This document shows positions 11,812 through 22,878 of a DNA stretch of 24,939 nucleotides, one piece after another. Positions within the stretch are counted from its first letter, which is position 1, and every line of letters starts with the position of its first letter. The stretch comes from a virus. The notes under the pieces were generated by a model. That model ran no database searches. It saw only the letters and a program-made list of their open reading frames with translations, and was not told the DNA's origin. Location: the IMG/VR virus record IMGVR_UViG_3300010885_021610, positions 1 to 24,939 of that record. One strand, given 5' to 3'. The translations under genes were made by a program, and so were the position numbers.

Positions 11812-12383
11812 TGATACTTAATGATGTAGTTAACAACAAGGTAAGGAGGGTTGGCCGTCCCTGTATCGCTTGGTGTGGTGCTGCCAGATGTCATTGCAGC
11901 GTTACCATCAACACCCCCGGTAACTAATCCAATGCGTCCACTGATAGTTGGGGCAGTATAACTTGCAGCTGCAGTATCACCTTTCGGCGCTGTTGTAGTA
12001 ACAGATCCACCCCATGCGCTGTAGCCACTGGGAGAGTTTGTAACAGCTAAATCAGCGCCAGTACCTAAGCCGTGATAATGAGCTGGTACGGTATGAGTAT
12101 GGCTAGCAGATGTATGAGCATGGTCAATTGCACCGCCACTATCTGCCAAGGTATTGCCAGTACCGCTAGCAGCTTTGCCAATTGGAAACCGTTGCCGCAA
12201 ATCAGGCAGGCTAAAACTTGAGCCATCAACCGCGCCGTAGGTTGTTCCCAAAATCGCAAACAACTTAACATGTGTTGTACGGCTTAGGCTTGTTCCATCG
12301 CAGATATAAAACGATGCAGGTGCGGTATTGGAATACCACAACAAGCCAGCCCCTATTGGCAATTCGCCGCCAAAAACTGGCAT
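11808..12383 (-). CDS. Tail-collar domain protein (tail fibre / receptor binding)
   Basis: 191 codons, ATG at 12383 sharing one base with the upstream stop (TAATG). Residues 7-72 show the phage tail-collar domain pattern (LPIGAGLLWYSNTAPASFYI, CDGTSLSRT, SFSLPDLRQRFPIG). This is followed by a His-rich segment with three HxH pairs (H88/H90, H95/H97, H102/H104). In trimeric fibres of the T4 gp12 type, such HxH motifs bind metal along the axis. The end, NPPYLVVNYIIKYQ, is the usual C terminus of this class. It probably forms or tips a short fibre contacting the host. Confidence 0.85.
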   Translation of the reverse strand: MPVFGGELPIGAGLLWYSNTAPASFYICDGTSLSRTTHVKLFAILGTTYGAVDGSSFSLPDLRQRFPIGKAASGTGNTLADSGGAIDHAHTSASHTHTVPAHYHGLGTGADLAVTNSPSGYSAWGGSVTTTAPKGDTAAASYTAPTISGRIGLVTGGVDGNAAMTSGSTTPSDTGTANPPYLVVNYIIKYQ

Positions 12384-13291
12384 TAGGTGATCTCCGTCAC
12401 GCGCATGCTACCTGTTGGCGAGCTATCCCAAATGCCATCAATGGCACCCGTATAAACGGGAGTAGGCAATTCCAGCGTTTGGTTAGGCTGTAACCGATAG
12501 GAAAAGCTAGTGCTGCTGGCTGTACTTCCGAGCTTCACATAGACCGTCTTATCGCAGTCGTTGTAAAGTACCGCCTGGCGACGCGAGGCGTTGGAAGCTA
12601 AAAGTACCGTGTTCGTAGCTGCCGATGTGACACTTGATACAGCACTGGATGAATAGGTAGCAGTCGCTACCGACCAAGTGCCGCTTTGCGTCGCCGCTAC
12701 AGTGCCATCAACGGTGATGCTTCCCCCGTTGTCGGATACAGGGATTGCTGAACTAAATGGATTACCTTGAGATGCTAAAGTTACACTTGGAAGCGTCAGT
12801 ACATCAACGTCGCCAATGTTATTAGTTCCCGCTGGCAAGGCTGTTCCAATAGTAACCGTACCATCAACCGTAATGCTTCCCCCATTGTCGGACACTGGAA
12901 TAGCACTGCTAAATGGATTGGTTTGGCTTGCAAGAGTTACGCTTGGCAGCGTAGCAACATCAATATCGCCGATGTTGTTATTCCCGGCTGGAAGCGCAGT
13001 AGAGATAGTTACCGCGCCGGTATTGCAAGCGGTTGTCTTTGCATCAAGATTTGAAAGGCTGGTATTCCCAACAGTTTGCTTTGCTTCTGTTGCAAGGCCA
13101 GCAGGATTGAGGGTGAATGTTCCACTCACTGGCAATGGGTTGAGGTCTGACACCAACGATTCAGCAGCACCATCGCCAATATCCAGGCGCATGTGCTGAA
13201 TATGCTTATTGTCTGCCGTCTGAGTAGTCCTAACAGGAATGTCAGGATTGTCGCTGATAGCAGAATTGGAAACCGTTACATTGTCCGTCAC
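12383..13291 (-). CDS. Tandem-repeat fibre-like virion protein
   Basis: 302 codons from a GTG start at 13291, with GAGG about 10 nt upstream. It begins just after the portal stop and ends in a TAATG overlap with the tail-collar gene. Residues 98-149 and 150-198 are two copies of one unit (LPAGNNNIGDIDV, LPSVTLASQ, NPFSSAIPVSDNGGSITVDG). The protein is otherwise Ser/Thr/Val/Asn-rich and beta-like, with a C-terminal domain (VYVKLGSTASS, YRLQPNQTLELPTPVYTGAI). This composition fits an elongated trimeric fibre or spike shaft. Placement directly after the portal and before the collar gene suggests that the two build one appendage. Confidence 0.75.
   Translation of the reverse strand: MTDNVTVSNSAISDNPDIPVRTTQTADNKHIQHMRLDIGDGAAESLVSDLNPLPVSGTFTLNPAGLATEAKQTVGNTSLSNLDAKTTACNTGAVTISTALPAGNNNIGDIDVATLPSVTLASQTNPFSSAIPVSDNGGSITVDGTVTIGTALPAGTNNIGDVDVLTLPSVTLASQGNPFSSAIPVSDNGGSITVDGTVAATQSGTWSVATATYSSSAVSSVTSAATNTVLLASNASRRQAVLYNDCDKTVYVKLGSTASSTSFSYRLQPNQTLELPTPVYTGAIDGIWDSSPTGSMRVTEIT
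12698..13000 (-). repeat. Two tandem copies of a 52-codon (156-nt) unit
   Basis: Unit A (13000-12845) and unit B (12844-12698, slightly shorter) encode nearly the same peptide but differ at many third codon positions. The duplication is therefore old and held by selection on the protein. Confidence 0.85.
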
Positions 13292-19254: not shown

Positions 19255-19566
19255 CTAGGACTTAGCTACTTCCTTGATCATATCCCACCATTCGGCATCT
19301 GTGAATTGCGTGAGTTGTTGCAGGGATACCAACTCCTCCAAGCTATAGGTCCTCTTAGTTTTCTCTCGTTGCATAATTGCGTCACGAGACACCCCCAGCA
19401 AACGCCCCATGTCGCGCTGTGAGAGGCCCATGCGACCACGTACCAGTCTATATAGTACGCCTACCGTTCGCCTCTCCTCGCGTATCCTGCGAGCTGTCAG
19501 ACCCTGTTTCATTACCTTTTCTGTCATGATAAGTGCGCCCACACCCTTACGGTATAACCTTGCCAT
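19255..19566 (-). CDS. XRE-family helix-turn-helix regulator
   Basis: 103 codons from ATG at 19566. Another ATG at 19527 would remove 13 residues, and neither has a strong ribosome site. Residues 47-80 form an XRE/Cro-type DNA-binding domain (MGLSQRDMGRLLGVSRDAIM, then QREKTKRTYSLEEL). A short C-terminal tail has two Trp (WWDMIKEV). No dimerisation or protease domain is present, so it is Cro-sized, not CI-sized. It lies between the rightward early and leftward late genes, on the late strand, the usual place for a phage switch regulator. A promoter-like motif directly upstream is shared with the recombinase promoter. Confidence 0.85.
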   Translation of the reverse strand: MARLYRKGVGALIMTEKVMKQGLTARRIREERRTVGVLYRLVRGRMGLSQRDMGRLLGVSRDAIMQREKTKRTYSLEELVSLQQLTQFTDAEWWDMIKEVAKS

Positions 19567-19609: not shown

Positions 19610-19676
19610 CCCCTCCTCGTGCCATACTTTGATCATCGGCACTGACTAGCTGATGTAACAAATAGGAGACACAATC

Positions 19677-19943
19677 ATGGTACGCAAGTTCGGAGCTAAA
19701 CAACTCACAGAGATAGACAACAACGGATTACGCATCCTTGTCTCATATCAAACGCCAGTAGCGGTATTCACAGGTTCAACACTGTATCGTACTGAACGCA
19801 AATTCAGCGTTACAACTAGCAAGCACATTACGTTCTATGTCAGCACGTTATTAAAGGAGAACCACACGTTCAACGTTGTGACAGTCCCCCAACACGTAAT
19901 AGAGAACGCGCGCTCCACCGGGCTAACGCCCGTTCAGCTGTAA
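19677..19943 (+). CDS. Conserved small phage protein (possibly DUF8033)
   Basis: 88 codons, ATG at 19677 behind the leader AGGAGACACAATC. The middle (NNGLRILVSYQTPVAVFTGS, LYRTERKFSVTTSKHITFYV) follows a pattern I recall from small phage proteins in which SYxTxVA, a KxYxT-like step and TTxxHI are conserved, possibly DUF8033. The domain name is from memory and needs a profile search. The function is unknown. It is the first gene of the rightward small-gene cassette. Its fold looks like a compact beta-rich domain with no membrane segment. Confidence 0.8.
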   Translation: MVRKFGAKQLTEIDNNGLRILVSYQTPVAVFTGSTLYRTERKFSVTTSKHITFYVSTLLKENHTFNVVTVPQHVIENARSTGLTPVQL

Positions 19944-19974
19944 CCAACTAACCGACTAGCAAGGAGACACAATC

Positions 19975-20205
19975 ATGACACGTAAAACAGAAATTTTTCG
20001 CAACGAATCAGCCTTCGCTGGCTATAGCTATCGCGTGCTCGCGAACGAATCAGTAGCAGCAATTCAGTGCCGCTATCAGCACGGCCGCTGGCGCACAATG
20101 AAACTTGTGACGCTAACTGAGTTCAACGAGTTTGTTGACAACGTTGATTTGTTCAACGTGTACGATCAGAACCCGGCTAAACTCGCACGTTACTCTGAGC
20201 AATAA
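19975..20205 (+). CDS. Unknown small protein
   Basis: 76 codons, ATG at 19975 behind the same leader (AAGGAGACACAATC). It is mixed-charge and soluble with no recognised motif. There is an aromatic/basic centre (GYSYRVLANES, CRYQHGRWRTMKLVTLTEFN) and an acidic C-terminal half. Spacing from its neighbours (about 30 nt on each side) and the copied leader make it a credible early gene. Possible host-takeover protein by position only. Confidence 0.7.
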   Translation: MTRKTEIFRNESAFAGYSYRVLANESVAAIQCRYQHGRWRTMKLVTLTEFNEFVDNVDLFNVYDQNPAKLARYSEQ

Positions 20206-20238
20206 CCGACTAACCGATGAAGACTAGGAGACACAATC

Positions 20239-20637
20239 ATGACAACTACAACAAAATTTAATTCGCACGCTATTCTCGTTACGCATTACGTTACAGAAAT
20301 CCGAAGATGGGACTGGAATGAGTTATTAACTACCGCAGAAAGTAACATGCAAGTTAACGAAGCGGGCGATAAATATGGGCAAGCATGGCTTGGAACGACA
20401 ATCGGAATACTAGTAATCAAACTAAATATGAGGCCAACTGGAAAAATTTATACTGGGAGGTCAGATATCCGTCGTGATGAGGCATTTTATGAAGCATTAG
20501 ACACGGTAGCAGAAACGAATGGAGGATGGATTACTTGGGAAAATGATAGTTGTTTTTTTCAGCTACCGCTTTTGGATTGTGCTAGCACGCCCGAAGATGA
20601 AATGGATGATGCAGTATTTTTAGACACTAACGAGTAA
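20239..20637 (+). CDS. Conserved-looking phage protein of unknown function
   Basis: 132 codons, ATG at 20239 behind AGGAGACACAATC. The order GQAWLGTTIGI, PTGKIYTG, DEAFYEALDTVAETNGGWIT recalls a widespread phage family with a L-G-T...P-S-G-K-x-Y-x...GGW layout. I know no function for it. The typical central Cys-rich insertion of that family, as I remember it, is missing here. The C terminus is acidic (TPEDEMDDAVFLDTNE). The protein is soluble, with no signal peptide. Confidence 0.75.
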   Translation: MTTTTKFNSHAILVTHYVTEIRRWDWNELLTTAESNMQVNEAGDKYGQAWLGTTIGILVIKLNMRPTGKIYTGRSDIRRDEAFYEALDTVAETNGGWITWENDSCFFQLPLLDCASTPEDEMDDAVFLDTNE

Positions 20638-20651
20638 GACTAGGAGACACA

Positions 20652-20894
20652 ATGACAACTGAACAAACAATAATTAACAAACTCTCATGCTCATGCGTTG
20701 CGTGTGGGCGTACGTTACTCAATCCTGGCTACAATCGCCGTCACGTATATTGTTGCGGCAAATATCGGCAATGGTATTCAACTACTGAGTACACGTACGC
20801 AGTAGACAATGGCAGAGACCAGCGGGGTAGATTTGCAAGGAAGCCCAGCCACCAATTAGTTGCACACAAACTGGTAGAGCAAGGAGGCATGTAG
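20652..20894 (+). CDS. Small Cys-rich, probably zinc-binding protein
   Basis: 80 codons, ATG at 20652 with the shortened leader AGGAGACACA. C13, C15, C18, C34 and C35 (LSCSCVACGR ... HVYCCGKYR) suggest a zinc-binding knuckle. The second half is basic with a RDQRGRFARKP stretch, as in nucleic-acid-binding proteins. It ends at GGCATGTAG, where an AGGAGG ribosome site for the next small gene overlaps its last codons. The specific function is not known. Confidence 0.7.
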   Translation: MTTEQTIINKLSCSCVACGRTLLNPGYNRRHVYCCGKYRQWYSTTEYTYAVDNGRDQRGRFARKPSHQLVAHKLVEQGGM

Positions 20895-20896
20895 TT

Positions 20897-20983
20897 ATGA
20901 ACGAAACACTGCACGAGGCCATCGGCCTAACTTTGCTGATCGTGCTCGCCTATCCGTTAGCCATTCTTTTGTTCGCGCTGTAA
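20897..20983 (+). CDS. 28-residue single-span membrane peptide
   Basis: 28 codons, ATG at 20897 with AGGAGG 9 nt upstream. The peptide starts with a polar, acidic end (MNETLHEAIG), then one hydrophobic helix with a Pro in the middle (LTLLIVLAYPLAILLFAL). It is too short for usual gene callers. The strong ribosome site and the clean membrane-span composition support it. It could act on the host inner membrane, for example as a superinfection-exclusion or holin-like peptide, but this is a guess. Confidence 0.6.
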   Translation: MNETLHEAIGLTLLIVLAYPLAILLFAL

Positions 20984-20987
20984 TCAA

Positions 20988-21042
20988 CGTGTAGACCAGC
21001 CACGCTCCTGAGGGGGTGTGCATGGTCGGCATGGTGCCGATT
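20988..21042 (+). repeat. Two-hairpin repeated element, copy 1
   Basis: A 55-nt unit that recurs at 21256-21310 with 48 of 55 bases the same. From 21001 it can fold as CACGCTCC with GGGGTGTG, then GTCGGCA with TGCCGAT around a TGG loop. It lies just before the ribosome site of the gene at 21059, so it would be in that gene's leader. Confidence 0.75.
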
Positions 21043-21058
21043 TGACTAGGAGGCATAT

Positions 21059-21262
21059 ATGTTAATAACTGCCAAGTATCATGCGCTGTTACGCAACTCT
21101 CAGGGGCTTGTGTTTGATTCTTGCAATTTCGCCAGTTTGGCAACGTTGCGAGACTGGGCGAGAGGTAGGGGCGGCGCGTACACATTAATTGTAGAGCACC
21201 GTGACGGCACACACAGTATCTTTACAGTGCGCAACAATCGTATCCAAGTTGCGCCCGTGTAG
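21059..21262 (+). CDS. Unknown small protein between the two-hairpin elements
   Basis: 67 codons, ATG at 21059 with AGGAGG about 7 nt upstream. Visible blocks: MLITAKYHALLRNSQGLVF, RDWARGRGGAYTLIVEHRDG and THSIFTVRNNRIQVAPV. It is likely a small alpha/beta fold. No family is recognised. It is flanked by the two copies of the 55-nt element, and its stop codon lies inside copy 2, so the gene plus one element looks like a unit that was copied or inserted. Confidence 0.7.
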   Translation: MLITAKYHALLRNSQGLVFDSCNFASLATLRDWARGRGGAYTLIVEHRDGTHSIFTVRNNRIQVAPV

Positions 21263-21310
21263 ATCACACACGCTCCTAAGGGGGCGTGGATGATCGGCAT
21301 GGTGCCGATT
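21256..21310 (+). repeat. Two-hairpin repeated element, copy 2
   Basis: Second copy of the unit at 20988-21042. It overlaps the stop codon of the 67-residue gene (GTG TAG) and leads into the secreted-protein gene. Stem 1 has a G-C pair where copy 1 has G-T, and stem 2 has A-T where copy 1 has G-T, so pairing is kept. Confidence 0.75.
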
Positions 21311-21328
21311 CACATCGGAGATACTTAC

Positions 21329-21736
21329 ATGCGATACATTACACTCACCATATTACTAGTATGCGCTAGCAATGCGCACGCTCAAGTACAGAGCGCCGCG
21401 GCATACCTTGCGGCTAACGGGGTCGGAAGTCTGGGGAGACTTGGCAGTCTCGGACCTGTTAACCCATACGTTGACCCATATGTTGACCCGTATGCTGGGG
21501 CAGTAGTTCCAGTAGCACCGCCCTTTGGACCTGCAATACCAATACCGCAAGGGCGTTATGCTGGTCCTTGGGGTACAGGTTACAGCGTAGTGACGACAGA
21601 GAGGGAGTCTACGGACTGGTTACGAAAGAGCTTGGGAGATCCCAACCACACCTATAAGCGCACTGTGACATCAATTCTTCCGAATGATGCGCTGGGGCAA
21701 CCTATGCAGGGACCAAGCCTGAATTTTTTGCCGTAA
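21329..21736 (+). CDS. Secreted/periplasmic small protein with PYVD repeats
   Basis: 135 codons from ATG at 21329, chosen because GGAG lies upstream and because it gives a clean Sec signal peptide (MRYITLTILLVCASNAHA, cleavage after A18). An upstream in-frame ATG at 21290 lies inside the second hairpin of the repeat element. The mature protein has three PYVD/PYAG steps (residues about 46-57), a Pro/Gly-rich centre and a C-terminal part (TERESTDWLRKSLGDPNHTY). No family is recognised. A phage protein exported on its own may change the host envelope, as superinfection-exclusion or moron proteins do. That role is inferred. Confidence 0.75.
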   Translation: MRYITLTILLVCASNAHAQVQSAAAYLAANGVGSLGRLGSLGPVNPYVDPYVDPYAGAVVPVAPPFGPAIPIPQGRYAGPWGTGYSVVTTERESTDWLRKSLGDPNHTYKRTVTSILPNDALGQPMQGPSLNFLP

Positions 21737-22028
21737 GTAGCGGCAAGGCTAGCAAAATAAAGGGGGTAAACATGGCGTAGGTTAAACCCGCAACGTTGAA
21801 CGTGTATCACTCGGTGAATCACCTACCGGGCGAGGCTTGGCATGCTTTATGCATGACAAAACGCCGTTCGTGTTCACCTATGCAAACTTTGCATAGCACT
21901 ATGCAATTATTGCGTAGTAGGCTAAAGGCATTTTTTAAATTCACGGAAACCAACCTATTTTTTCCATAGTCCCACCAAAAATTTTTTAGTTTTTTTCGTT
22001 TCAAAATTCGGAAAAGTGAGAATACCAC
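21737..22028. other. Intergenic region before the recombinase promoter
   Basis: No gene is supported here. It holds a TTGCCG/CGGCAA hairpin over the secreted-protein stop (21728-21746), a start-stop mini frame ATG-GCG-TAG behind AGGGGG at 21761-21780, a CATGC/GCATG repeat (21841-21855), the twin palindromes at 21878-21917, and an AT-rich stretch with several T-runs (about 21928-22015). Confidence 0.6.
21878..21917. promoter_or_regulatory. Twin 19-bp palindromes, candidate operators
   Basis: CTATGCAAACTTTGCATAG (21878-21896) is a perfect palindrome around one base. CTATGCAATTATTGCGTAG (21899-21917) is the same 8-3-8 layout with one mismatch. Centres are 21 bp apart, two helical turns, so dimers bound to both would sit on one face of the DNA. 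They lie about 115 bp before the recombinase promoter. An iteron-like role is the alternative. Confidence 0.65.
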
Positions 22029-22098: not shown

Positions 22099-22878
22099 AT
22101 GACCAAAGAAGTGACGATAAACAACAACCAGGAAATGTTGCATGCGCTGCGAAACACGGTAGCGCCTGGCCTGACGGATGCAGAGTTTTTACTGTTTGCC
22201 GAAATTTGTAAGTCCACTGGTCTTAACCCTGCAACGAAAGAAGTTTGGGCTATCAAGGCTGGCGGTCGGCTGCAGCTTATGACGGGCATCAACGGGTTCT
22301 TGCGGATTGCAAATTCTCATCCCCAATTTGACGGGATGGAAGTGAGCTACGAATGGGACGGTAAAACCCTCATGGCTTGTACTGTGAAGGTTCATCGCAA
22401 GGATAGAAAATATCCATCGGTGGCTACGGCGTATTGGTCGGAATACGCCAAGCCAAGTCCGATCTGGAAGCAAATGCCGACGGTTATGCTTAGCAAATGC
22501 GCTAAGTCATTAGCCATTCGGGAAGCGTTCATTCAAGAGTTAGGCGGTCTTTATACCCAGGAGGAAATGCCAAATGAGTTTTCTAGTCATAACGTCAAGT
22601 CTATCGTTTCTGTTCCTGTATCTGCGACTGAGACGGTTCAAGTGGATCGGGAAACAGGTGAGGTTAAGAGCCAGAACGATGAATTGCCTTGGGAGGGTGC
22701 TCCACTAAAGGCTGGCAGCAAGGCCAAGAAAACCAAGTATGACGTTTCTGGGTTAGCGGACGAAAAACTGCAGATCGCTGAAGCTTACCTGAACGCCTCA
22801 AGCTGCAAACAGGTTGGGGATAACCTGTGGGAATGTCCCATAAGGCTTGAGAAACTCACGAGTTGTATTGTGGATTAG
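22099..22878 (+). CDS. bet: Single-strand annealing recombinase, Bet/RecT family
   Basis: 259 codons, ATG at 22099 with AAAAGGAGACAAA before it. Residues 21-80 (APGLTDAEFLLFAEICKSTG, LNPATKEVWAIKAGGRLQL, MTGINGFLRIANSHPQFDG) follow the phage recombination protein Bet (Red-beta) pattern. AYWSEYAKPSPIWKQMPTVM and LSKCAKSLAIREAFIQELGG complete the core (about 110-150). A linker follows, then a C-terminal ~45 residues (KLQIAEAYLNASSCKQVGDN) that could form a small accessory domain. The protein would anneal complementary strands during recombination-dependent replication. The usual partner exonuclease is not in the window. It is the first gene after a strong regulatory gap. Confidence 0.9.
   Translation: MTKEVTINNNQEMLHALRNTVAPGLTDAEFLLFAEICKSTGLNPATKEVWAIKAGGRLQLMTGINGFLRIANSHPQFDGMEVSYEWDGKTLMACTVKVHRKDRKYPSVATAYWSEYAKPSPIWKQMPTVMLSKCAKSLAIREAFIQELGGLYTQEEMPNEFSSHNVKSIVSVPVSATETVQVDRETGEVKSQNDELPWEGAPLKAGSKAKKTKYDVSGLADEKLQIAEAYLNASSCKQVGDNLWECPIRLEKLTSCIVD

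What the first reader, a model, noticed from the sequence alone, without database searches (positions are those of the whole stretch)
20988..21310. Duplicated two-hairpin element whose differences keep base pairing
Two 55-nt copies (20988-21042 and 21256-21310) differ at 7 positions. In the 42-nt hairpin part there are only 4 changes: one in a loop, one in the linker, one turning a G-T pair into G-C, and one turning G-T into A-T. All are neutral for folding. Each copy lies in the leader of a small early gene (67-residue and secreted). This pattern suggests selection on an RNA structure, possibly a translation or stability element or a target for a phage protein.
Basis: partly seen in the sequence, partly recalled or inferred. 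Interest (0 to 1): 0.65.

Follow-up and report, generated by a model that had tools for sequence, protein, structure and literature searches.

The report
Refolding hairpins between phage early genes
The repeated element is a real, evolutionarily conserved RNA structure that fills the gap between neighbouring early genes in a group of uncultured phages, and it can fold in two mutually exclusive ways, which suggests that it is a site where the phage message is cut or otherwise switched.

Summary
In detail: 55-nt copies at 20988-21042 and 21256-21310, differing at 7 positions, far beyond chance. The two-hairpin fold needs correcting. All nine distinct type-i copies (two here, seven from related viral contigs) fold best as one long interrupted hairpin, P1-(1x1)-P2-(2x2)-P3.

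The same architecture with different sequence lies between early genes of many related phages, up to three copies each, from stop codon to Shine-Dalgarno, beside 24 unrelated downstream gene families. A 29-sequence subfamily covaries strongly. A model built only from it finds the window copy (E=1.3e-5). H2 recurs in nearly every sequence class. Rfam has no match.

Best explanation: intercistronic mRNA-processing hairpins resembling T7 RNase III sites. A cut on the 3' side near the 2x2 loop would leave P3 closing the upstream message and let H2 form at the new 5' end. Structure and the conserved alternative fold are shown; cutting is inferred.

The parts
20897..20983 (+). 28-aa single-helix ORF (MNETLHEAIGLTLLIVLAYPLAILLFAL); an element follows its stop codon in every type-i locus
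20988..21033 (+). Copy 1 long hairpin: P1 20988-20992/21029-21033, 1x1 A.G 20993/21028, P2 20994-20998/21023-21027, 2x2 loop 20999-21000/21021-21022, P3 21001-21008/21013-21020, loop 21009-21012
   Evidence: MFE and centroid -27.1 kcal/mol, z -2.8; consensus fold of 9 copies
21025..21041 (+). Copy 1 alternative hairpin H2 (GTCGGCA-TGG-TGCCGAT), mutually exclusive with P1 and part of P2
   Evidence: forced-fold energies; shuffle test p=0.015
21048..21053 (+). Shine-Dalgarno AGGAGG of the 67-aa ORF
   Evidence: sequence
21059..21262 (+). 67-aa ORF, a gene present or absent between the two element copies; its stop codon TAG 21260-21262 lies at the P1/P2 junction of copy 2
   Evidence: 84% identical in L038; absent in L019, L025, L005 and L034, where a single element joins the same flanks
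21255..21302 (+). Copy 2 long hairpin: P1 21255-21260/21297-21302, 1x1 21261/21296, P2 21262-21266/21291-21295, 2x2 loop 21267-21268/21289-21290, P3 21269-21276/21281-21288, loop 21277-21280
   Evidence: MFE -31.6 kcal/mol, z -4.5; found by independent model R2 with 37.4 bits, E=1.3e-5
21293..21309 (+). Copy 2 alternative hairpin H2 (ATCGGCA-TGG-TGCCGAT)
21305..21318 (+). Copy 2 extra hairpin H3 (CCGAT-TCAC-ATCGG) reaching into the Shine-Dalgarno, compatible with the long hairpin but not with H2; only in copies ahead of the signal-peptide gene
21329..21736 (+). 135-aa ORF with signal peptide, downstream gene of copy 2

Best explanation
Shown by computation: the element is a member of a family of structured RNAs that occupy the intercistronic gaps of the early operon in a group of uncultured phages. 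The most stable form is one hairpin of about 22 rungs: about 12 rungs (P1+P2), a 2x2 internal loop (often 5'-A[CA]...[GA]U-3'), then P3 of 8 or more pairs capped by a small, often UNCG-like loop. The 3' strand of P2/P1 can instead pair with the sequence just before the Shine-Dalgarno (H2), and this alternative is kept across divergent classes. Inferred: the element is an mRNA-processing site that works like the T7 intercistronic RNase III sites. An RNase III-type enzyme binds the two-turn hairpin and cuts once, on the 3' side at or near the 2x2 loop. The upstream message then ends in P3, a barrier to 3' exonucleases. The freed P2'/P1' strand refolds into H2, 0-3 nt from the new 5' end, where it can protect the downstream message from 5'-end-dependent decay while leaving the Shine-Dalgarno open. 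Separately, pairs of copies act as homologous seams at which single-gene cassettes such as the 67-aa ORF are gained or lost; the phage's own RecT/Bet annealing protein is a plausible agent. The structure claim I hold at above 0.9; the processing mechanism is the uncertain step, and the confidence below is for it.
For: Same long hairpin in 9 of 9 type-i copies folded alone. P2 C-G to U-A double change in two copies and P3 G-C/G-U/A-U at one pair. Subfamily iii, 29 sequences: 97.5% of cells paired, 47 double-changed cells against 15.4 in shuffles, covariation score 0.309 against 0.174, 0 of 500 shuffles as high; slid controls at most 0.134. Model from subfamily iii alone finds window copy 2 (E=1.3e-5) and L120; 62 other loci gave one weak hit. 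Descriptor hits 40 on the sense strand against 4 on the antisense strand upstream of recT, as expected for G-U-bearing RNA. The upstream stop codon begins 17 to 2 nt before P2 and the ATG usually lies 60-71 nt after it, next to 24 downstream and 16 upstream protein families, so the element, not the gene, is the conserved unit. H2: 17 of 21 representatives at p<=0.05, against 8% of 300 other gene starts in the same loci; Fisher 3e-8 over 10 classes. Removing the 5' half makes H2 form 0-3 nt from the new end, with little change in Shine-Dalgarno accessibility in most classes. T7 R1.1 is a 49-nt stem cut at a single phosphodiester (47 + 13 nt products), and a 12-bp stem with a tetraloop suffices for single-strand cleavage (PMC8708148, PMC4858673). 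That 5' stem-loops protect mRNA is established (Emory/Bouvet/Belasco, in the reference list of PMC3997798).
Against: No transcript data, no known host, no cleavage data. RNase III does not need a particular internal-loop sequence, yet 5'-ACA/GAU-3' recurs in seven classes, which could point to a specific binding protein. P1 of type i never varies apart from its outermost position, so it has no covariation support. H2 is 3-6 kcal/mol less stable than the long form in intact type-i RNA and absent in L044. H2 has little covariation inside subfamilies because its sequence there is nearly invariant. The classes used as independent may share ancestry.
Confidence: 0.42

Rival explanations
1. Translation-coupled switch. 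The ribosome terminating on the upstream gene covers the 5' strand of P1/P2, the long hairpin opens, H2 forms, and initiation on the downstream gene is tuned (as in erm-type leaders).
For: The upstream stop codon always sits in or next to P1. In copies before the signal-peptide gene, H3 pairs with part of the Shine-Dalgarno only when H2 is absent. Shine-Dalgarno accessibility rises for W1, L91 and L118 when the 5' half is removed.
Against: In most classes predicted Shine-Dalgarno accessibility is about the same in both states. No shared anti-Shine-Dalgarno strand across classes.
Confidence: 0.22
2. Binding site for a phage or host RNA-binding protein that recognises the 2x2 loop 5'-ACA/GAU-3' and controls stability, translation or elongation of early operons.
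For: The tandem mismatch recurs in seven classes whose stems differ. Several copies lie in one operon.
Against: Type-i copies mostly have other loop sequences (GC/CA, GA/CA). No candidate protein identified.
Confidence: 0.17
3. RNA antiterminator of the HK022 put type: nascent P3/H2 stem-loops modify RNA polymerase so that it reads through early terminators.
For: Two adjacent stems of about 70 nt in early operons of a phage; put RNAs are about 70 nt with two stem-loops (PMC9378689).
Against: put lies downstream of the two early promoters, one for each. Here copies sit between genes, up to three per locus, between a stop codon and a Shine-Dalgarno. The favoured fold is one hairpin.
Confidence: 0.07
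4. DNA-level element: operator, recombination site (integron attC-like) or selfish repeat that marks cassette borders; the hairpin is a by-product.
For: A gene is present or absent exactly between two copies. H2 is a near-perfect DNA palindrome.
Against: Pairing is kept through G-U intermediates and with a strong sense-strand bias. The position is fixed relative to stop codon and Shine-Dalgarno. No RYYYAAC...GTTRRRY core ends, and no recombinase of the integrase kind among the window proteins scanned.
Confidence: 0.06
5. Passive protective hairpin or insulator without cleavage, for example a 3'-end or Rho barrier between genes.
For: Stable GC-rich P3 with UNCG-like loops in many copies.
Against: Does not explain why H2 is kept in every class but one; no U-run, so not an intrinsic terminator.
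Confidence: 0.06

Closest known systems
T7 early-mRNA RNase III processing sites (R1.1 and others)
   Same: Phage early operon, intercistronic, irregular hairpin of about two helical turns with an internal loop, several sites per operon
   Different: No cleavage shown here; symmetrical 2x2 loop with recurrent sequence; a conserved alternative hairpin H2; unrelated phage and sequence
HK022 putL/putR antitermination RNAs
   Same: About 70-nt structured RNA in phage early transcripts
   Different: put lies downstream of the early promoters, one for each, with two coexisting stem-loops; here multiple intercistronic copies with mutually exclusive stems
Translation-coupled bistable leaders such as erm
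   Same: Stop codon next to a hairpin that competes with a second hairpin before the Shine-Dalgarno
   Different: Shine-Dalgarno exposed about equally in both states in most classes; no leader-peptide stalling motif tested
5'-terminal stabilising stem-loops (ompA, papA)
   Same: H2 would be such a hairpin after cleavage
   Different: Here it would appear only after refolding; not shown
Rfam release 15 families
   Same: Structured RNA family with covariation
   Different: No family matches the element at gathering score; best sub-threshold match is an irrelevant miRNA model at E 0.41

Membership tests
Phage intercistronic RNase III processing site (T7 R-site kind) | Located between cistrons of an early polycistronic transcript | tested here: met
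   Between stop codon and Shine-Dalgarno in nearly all copies tested; 'early' and 'polycistronic' inferred from gene order
Phage intercistronic RNase III processing site (T7 R-site kind) | Irregular hairpin of about two helical turns with an internal loop, about 12 pairs on one side | tested here: met
   About 12 rungs below and 8 or more pairs above the 2x2 loop
Phage intercistronic RNase III processing site (T7 R-site kind) | Cleaved by RNase III in vitro and in infected cells | not testable with these tools
   Needs purified enzyme or RNA-seq
HK022 put antiterminator | Two coexisting stem-loops within about 70 nt | tested here: not met
   The favoured fold is a single hairpin; H2 excludes P1 and part of P2
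HK022 put antiterminator | Position downstream of an early promoter, one per early operon | tested here: not met
   Up to three intercistronic copies per locus
Intrinsic terminator | GC-rich stem directly followed by a U-run | tested here: not met
   P3 is followed by GA-P2', H2 by the Shine-Dalgarno spacer; no U-run
Integron attC site | RYYYAAC...GTTRRRY ends and a cognate integrase | tested here: not met
   Ends do not fit; no integrase among the window proteins scanned; contig may be partial
Known Rfam RNA family | Match at or above gathering score | tested here: not met
   (one search gave tRNAs elsewhere in three loci only)
Translation-coupled bistable leader | Alternative fold changes Shine-Dalgarno accessibility | tested here: inconclusive
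   True for some type-i copies, not for most other classes

The most novel reading that the evidence does not exclude
A previously undescribed family of bistable intercistronic RNAs recurs between many different early genes of a phage lineage. A dedicated factor reads the 5'-ACA/GAU-3' internal loop, and cutting or opening the long hairpin refolds the 3' half into a 5' protective hairpin. The elements also serve as the recombination seams at which single-gene cassettes are shuffled, so that a gene can arrive with its own processing site.
Probability: 0.25. Interest if true: 0.78.

Novelty: new variant of a known kind. Interest (0 to 1): 0.62.

Why it matters
If right, these phages carry their own modular punctuation for polycistronic mRNA: early genes are bounded by a hairpin that can end one message and cap the next. 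That would be a simple, testable parallel to T7 RNA processing in an unrelated phage group, with the refolding step as a new feature. It also gives a marker, a covariance model, for finding early operons and cassette borders in uncultured phages, and a set of naturally varied hairpins for studying how RNase III or another factor recognises internal loops.

Tried and rejected
One viral-contig scan was wasted by an error in my pattern (four N in place of three). The plain H2 17-mer scan mostly returned chance coding matches, but gave the first relatives. L119 matched the element pattern by chance: no hairpin, coding context. Many of the distinct pattern-iii matches were chance, with no fold and mostly no Shine-Dalgarno. 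No match in 84,980 bacterial and archaeal genomes for either pattern, no similar DNA in cultured phages, and only distant protein relatives there. Idea rejected: CTCCT in P3 as an anti-Shine-Dalgarno; it is not kept in relatives. Idea left open: a mini-ORF MVGMVPI* inside copy 1; its reading frame and residues are not kept (L118 MVSMSLP, L120 MIGMMPM), so it looks incidental. A fuzzy-regex scan timed out.

Full report
OBSERVATION. Such a match is not expected by chance (about 1e-12). Both copies lie in leaders, of a 67-aa ORF (21059-21262) and of a 135-aa signal-peptide ORF (21329-21736), in a rightward, presumably early region between an HTH repressor (19255-19566, minus strand) and a RecT/Bet annealing protein (22099-22878). 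The left part of the contig carries terminase, portal, major head, tail and amidase genes on the minus strand. The record is a 24.9-kb viral contig. No similar DNA was found in 50,697 phage records.

FOLD. Nine distinct copies of this sequence type were found: two in the window, two in L002, and one each in L025 (same as L005, L034), L019, L120, L091 and L118. Folded alone, all nine give one long hairpin: P1, a 1x1 mismatch, P2, a 2x2 internal loop, P3, and a small loop; P1 or P2 is a pair shorter in a few. With the downstream gene start included, eight of nine keep it as the best fold and L091 trades P1 for another pairing by 0.7 kcal/mol. RNAalifold gives the same consensus. The second hairpin (H2) uses the 3' strand of P2/P1 and is 3-6 kcal/mol less stable in the intact RNA, so the two compete. 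P3 keeps pairing through G-C, G-U and A-U. P1 does not vary apart from its outermost position and so says nothing. In L118, H2 keeps pairing after several changes, with one pair changed on both sides.

A WIDER FAMILY. A covariance model of these nine found a weak match in L066, between two early genes of a related phage, with the same architecture but other sequence. A geometric search upstream of recT in related loci gave 40 sense-strand hits against 4 antisense (redundant homologues included), many just before a Shine-Dalgarno. The asymmetry is what G-U pairs in RNA produce. Two pattern scans then gave subfamily ii (GGTAAAGCACA...GATGCTT) and subfamily iii (GATTACA...GATAATCGC), the latter with up to three copies per phage. 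On 29 subfamily-iii sequences, 97.5% of cells are paired. There are 47 double-changed cells against 15.4 in shuffles, and a covariation score of 0.309 against 0.174 (0 of 500 shuffles); slid structures reach at most 0.134. P3 changes almost freely while staying paired. A model built from subfamily iii alone finds window copy 2 at 37.4 bits (E=1.3e-5) and L120 at 23.4 bits, plus further variants in L044, L178, L064, L150, L047 and L051. The same model on 62 other loci gave a single weak hit. Most of these variants show the same architecture; L047 is the poorest. The window element is therefore linked to an independent set of sequences by structure.

POSITION. Where the upstream gene could be read, its stop codon begins 17 to 2 nt before P2, and the downstream ATG usually lies 60-71 nt after it. 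The element is thus the whole intercistronic gap. The genes differ: 24 unrelated downstream families and 16 upstream families. In L019, L025, L005 and L034 a single element joins the flank upstream of window copy 1 to the flank downstream of copy 2, without the 67-aa gene; in L118 another small gene follows. The copies behave as seams at which single-gene cassettes are gained or lost. Agency of the phage's RecT is plausible but not shown.

THE ALTERNATIVE HAIRPIN. H2 is found in every class but one (L044), with different sequence each time: TCGGCA-TGG-TGCCGA (i), GCTTaACC-gatgac-GGTAAGC (ii), TCGCA-ATAG-TGCGA (iii), ACACT-aacta-AGTGT (L178b), GCTGTAATGTTACAGC (L051) and so on. Against shuffled spacers 17 of 21 representatives have p<=0.05; among 300 other gene starts of the same loci 8% do (Fisher over ten classes 3e-8, with the caveat that classes may share ancestry). 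When the 5' half is removed, H2 forms 0-3 nt from the new end, while predicted Shine-Dalgarno accessibility stays about the same in most classes. In copies ahead of the signal-peptide gene a further hairpin H3 touches the Shine-Dalgarno in the long form, so a translational role is possible there.

MECHANISM. The best-supported reading is an mRNA-processing site that works like the T7 early RNase III sites. Published facts used: T7 R1.1 is a 49-nt stem cut at one phosphodiester, yielding 47 and 13 nt; [quoted passage not shown] and a 12-bp stem with tetraloop suffices for single-strand cleavage (PMC8708148 and PMC4858673). The family's geometry (about 12 rungs, 2x2 loop, 8 or more pairs) fits. 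A 3'-side cut at or near the loop would leave P3 on the upstream message and free H2 as a 5' cap on the downstream one; 5'-terminal stem-loops are known to stabilise bacterial mRNA (Emory, Bouvet and Belasco, in the reference list of PMC3997798). Shown: structure, covariation, position, H2 conservation. Inferred: cutting, its place, the enzyme, the effect on stability. The recurrent loop 5'-A[CA]...[GA]U-3' in seven classes is, to my knowledge, not required by RNase III and leaves room for a dedicated binding protein.

COMPARISON. Rfam has no match to the element. HK022 put RNAs are about 70 nt with two stem-loops and lie downstream of the two early promoters (PMC9378689); the present element fails on position, copy number and fold. 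It is not an intrinsic terminator (no U-run). attC sites fail on end motifs, and no integrase was seen among the window proteins scanned. I file it as a new RNA family that works like a T7-type processing site; membership in that kind is unproven because cleavage could not be tested. Paper searches for a prior description found none in the open-access library, which does not cover most subscription journals.

LIMITS. Nothing is known of the host, transcripts or times of expression; 'early' is inferred from gene order. Viral scans were capped, so family size is a lower bound. Shuffle counts treat related sequences as independent; the slid-structure control and the cross-subfamily model hit are the stronger tests.

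Noticed in passing
window 21879-21916: Short palindromes (TATGCAAACTTTGCATA, TATGCAATTATTGCGTA) between the signal-peptide gene and recT; similar ones at the same place in L118 (ACGCAATTTTTGCGT, ATGCAATCTTTGCG). Possible operator or replication origin.
   Followed up: no
window 19664-19687, 19962-19985, 20226-20249, 20631-20677: Other early genes of the same operon share a repeated ribosome-site unit (AGGAGACACAATCATGAC), a second kind of repeated gene-start sequence without the hairpin.
   Followed up: no
window 20897-20983: A 28-32-aa single-helix ORF ending ...LAYP...FAL is kept in all type-i phages directly before the element, with variable genes on both sides; in L120 it can be read as the end of a longer frame.
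   Followed up: partly
window 21022-21045: A mini-ORF (ATGGTCGGCATGGTGCCGATTTGA, MVGMVPI*) behind a GGGGG inside copy 1; in copy 2 the same frame runs into the signal-peptide gene. The frame is not kept in L019 and L120.
   Followed up: partly
window 12699-13010: 156-nt tandem duplication, 72% identical, inside a late gene (12383-13291, minus strand).
   Followed up: no
L058 541, 975, 1259; L055 2874, 3188, 3523; L088 45, 1332, 1637: Three copies of the family in one early region, at successive gene borders in L055 and L058, with different P3 stems in the same phage.
   Followed up: partly
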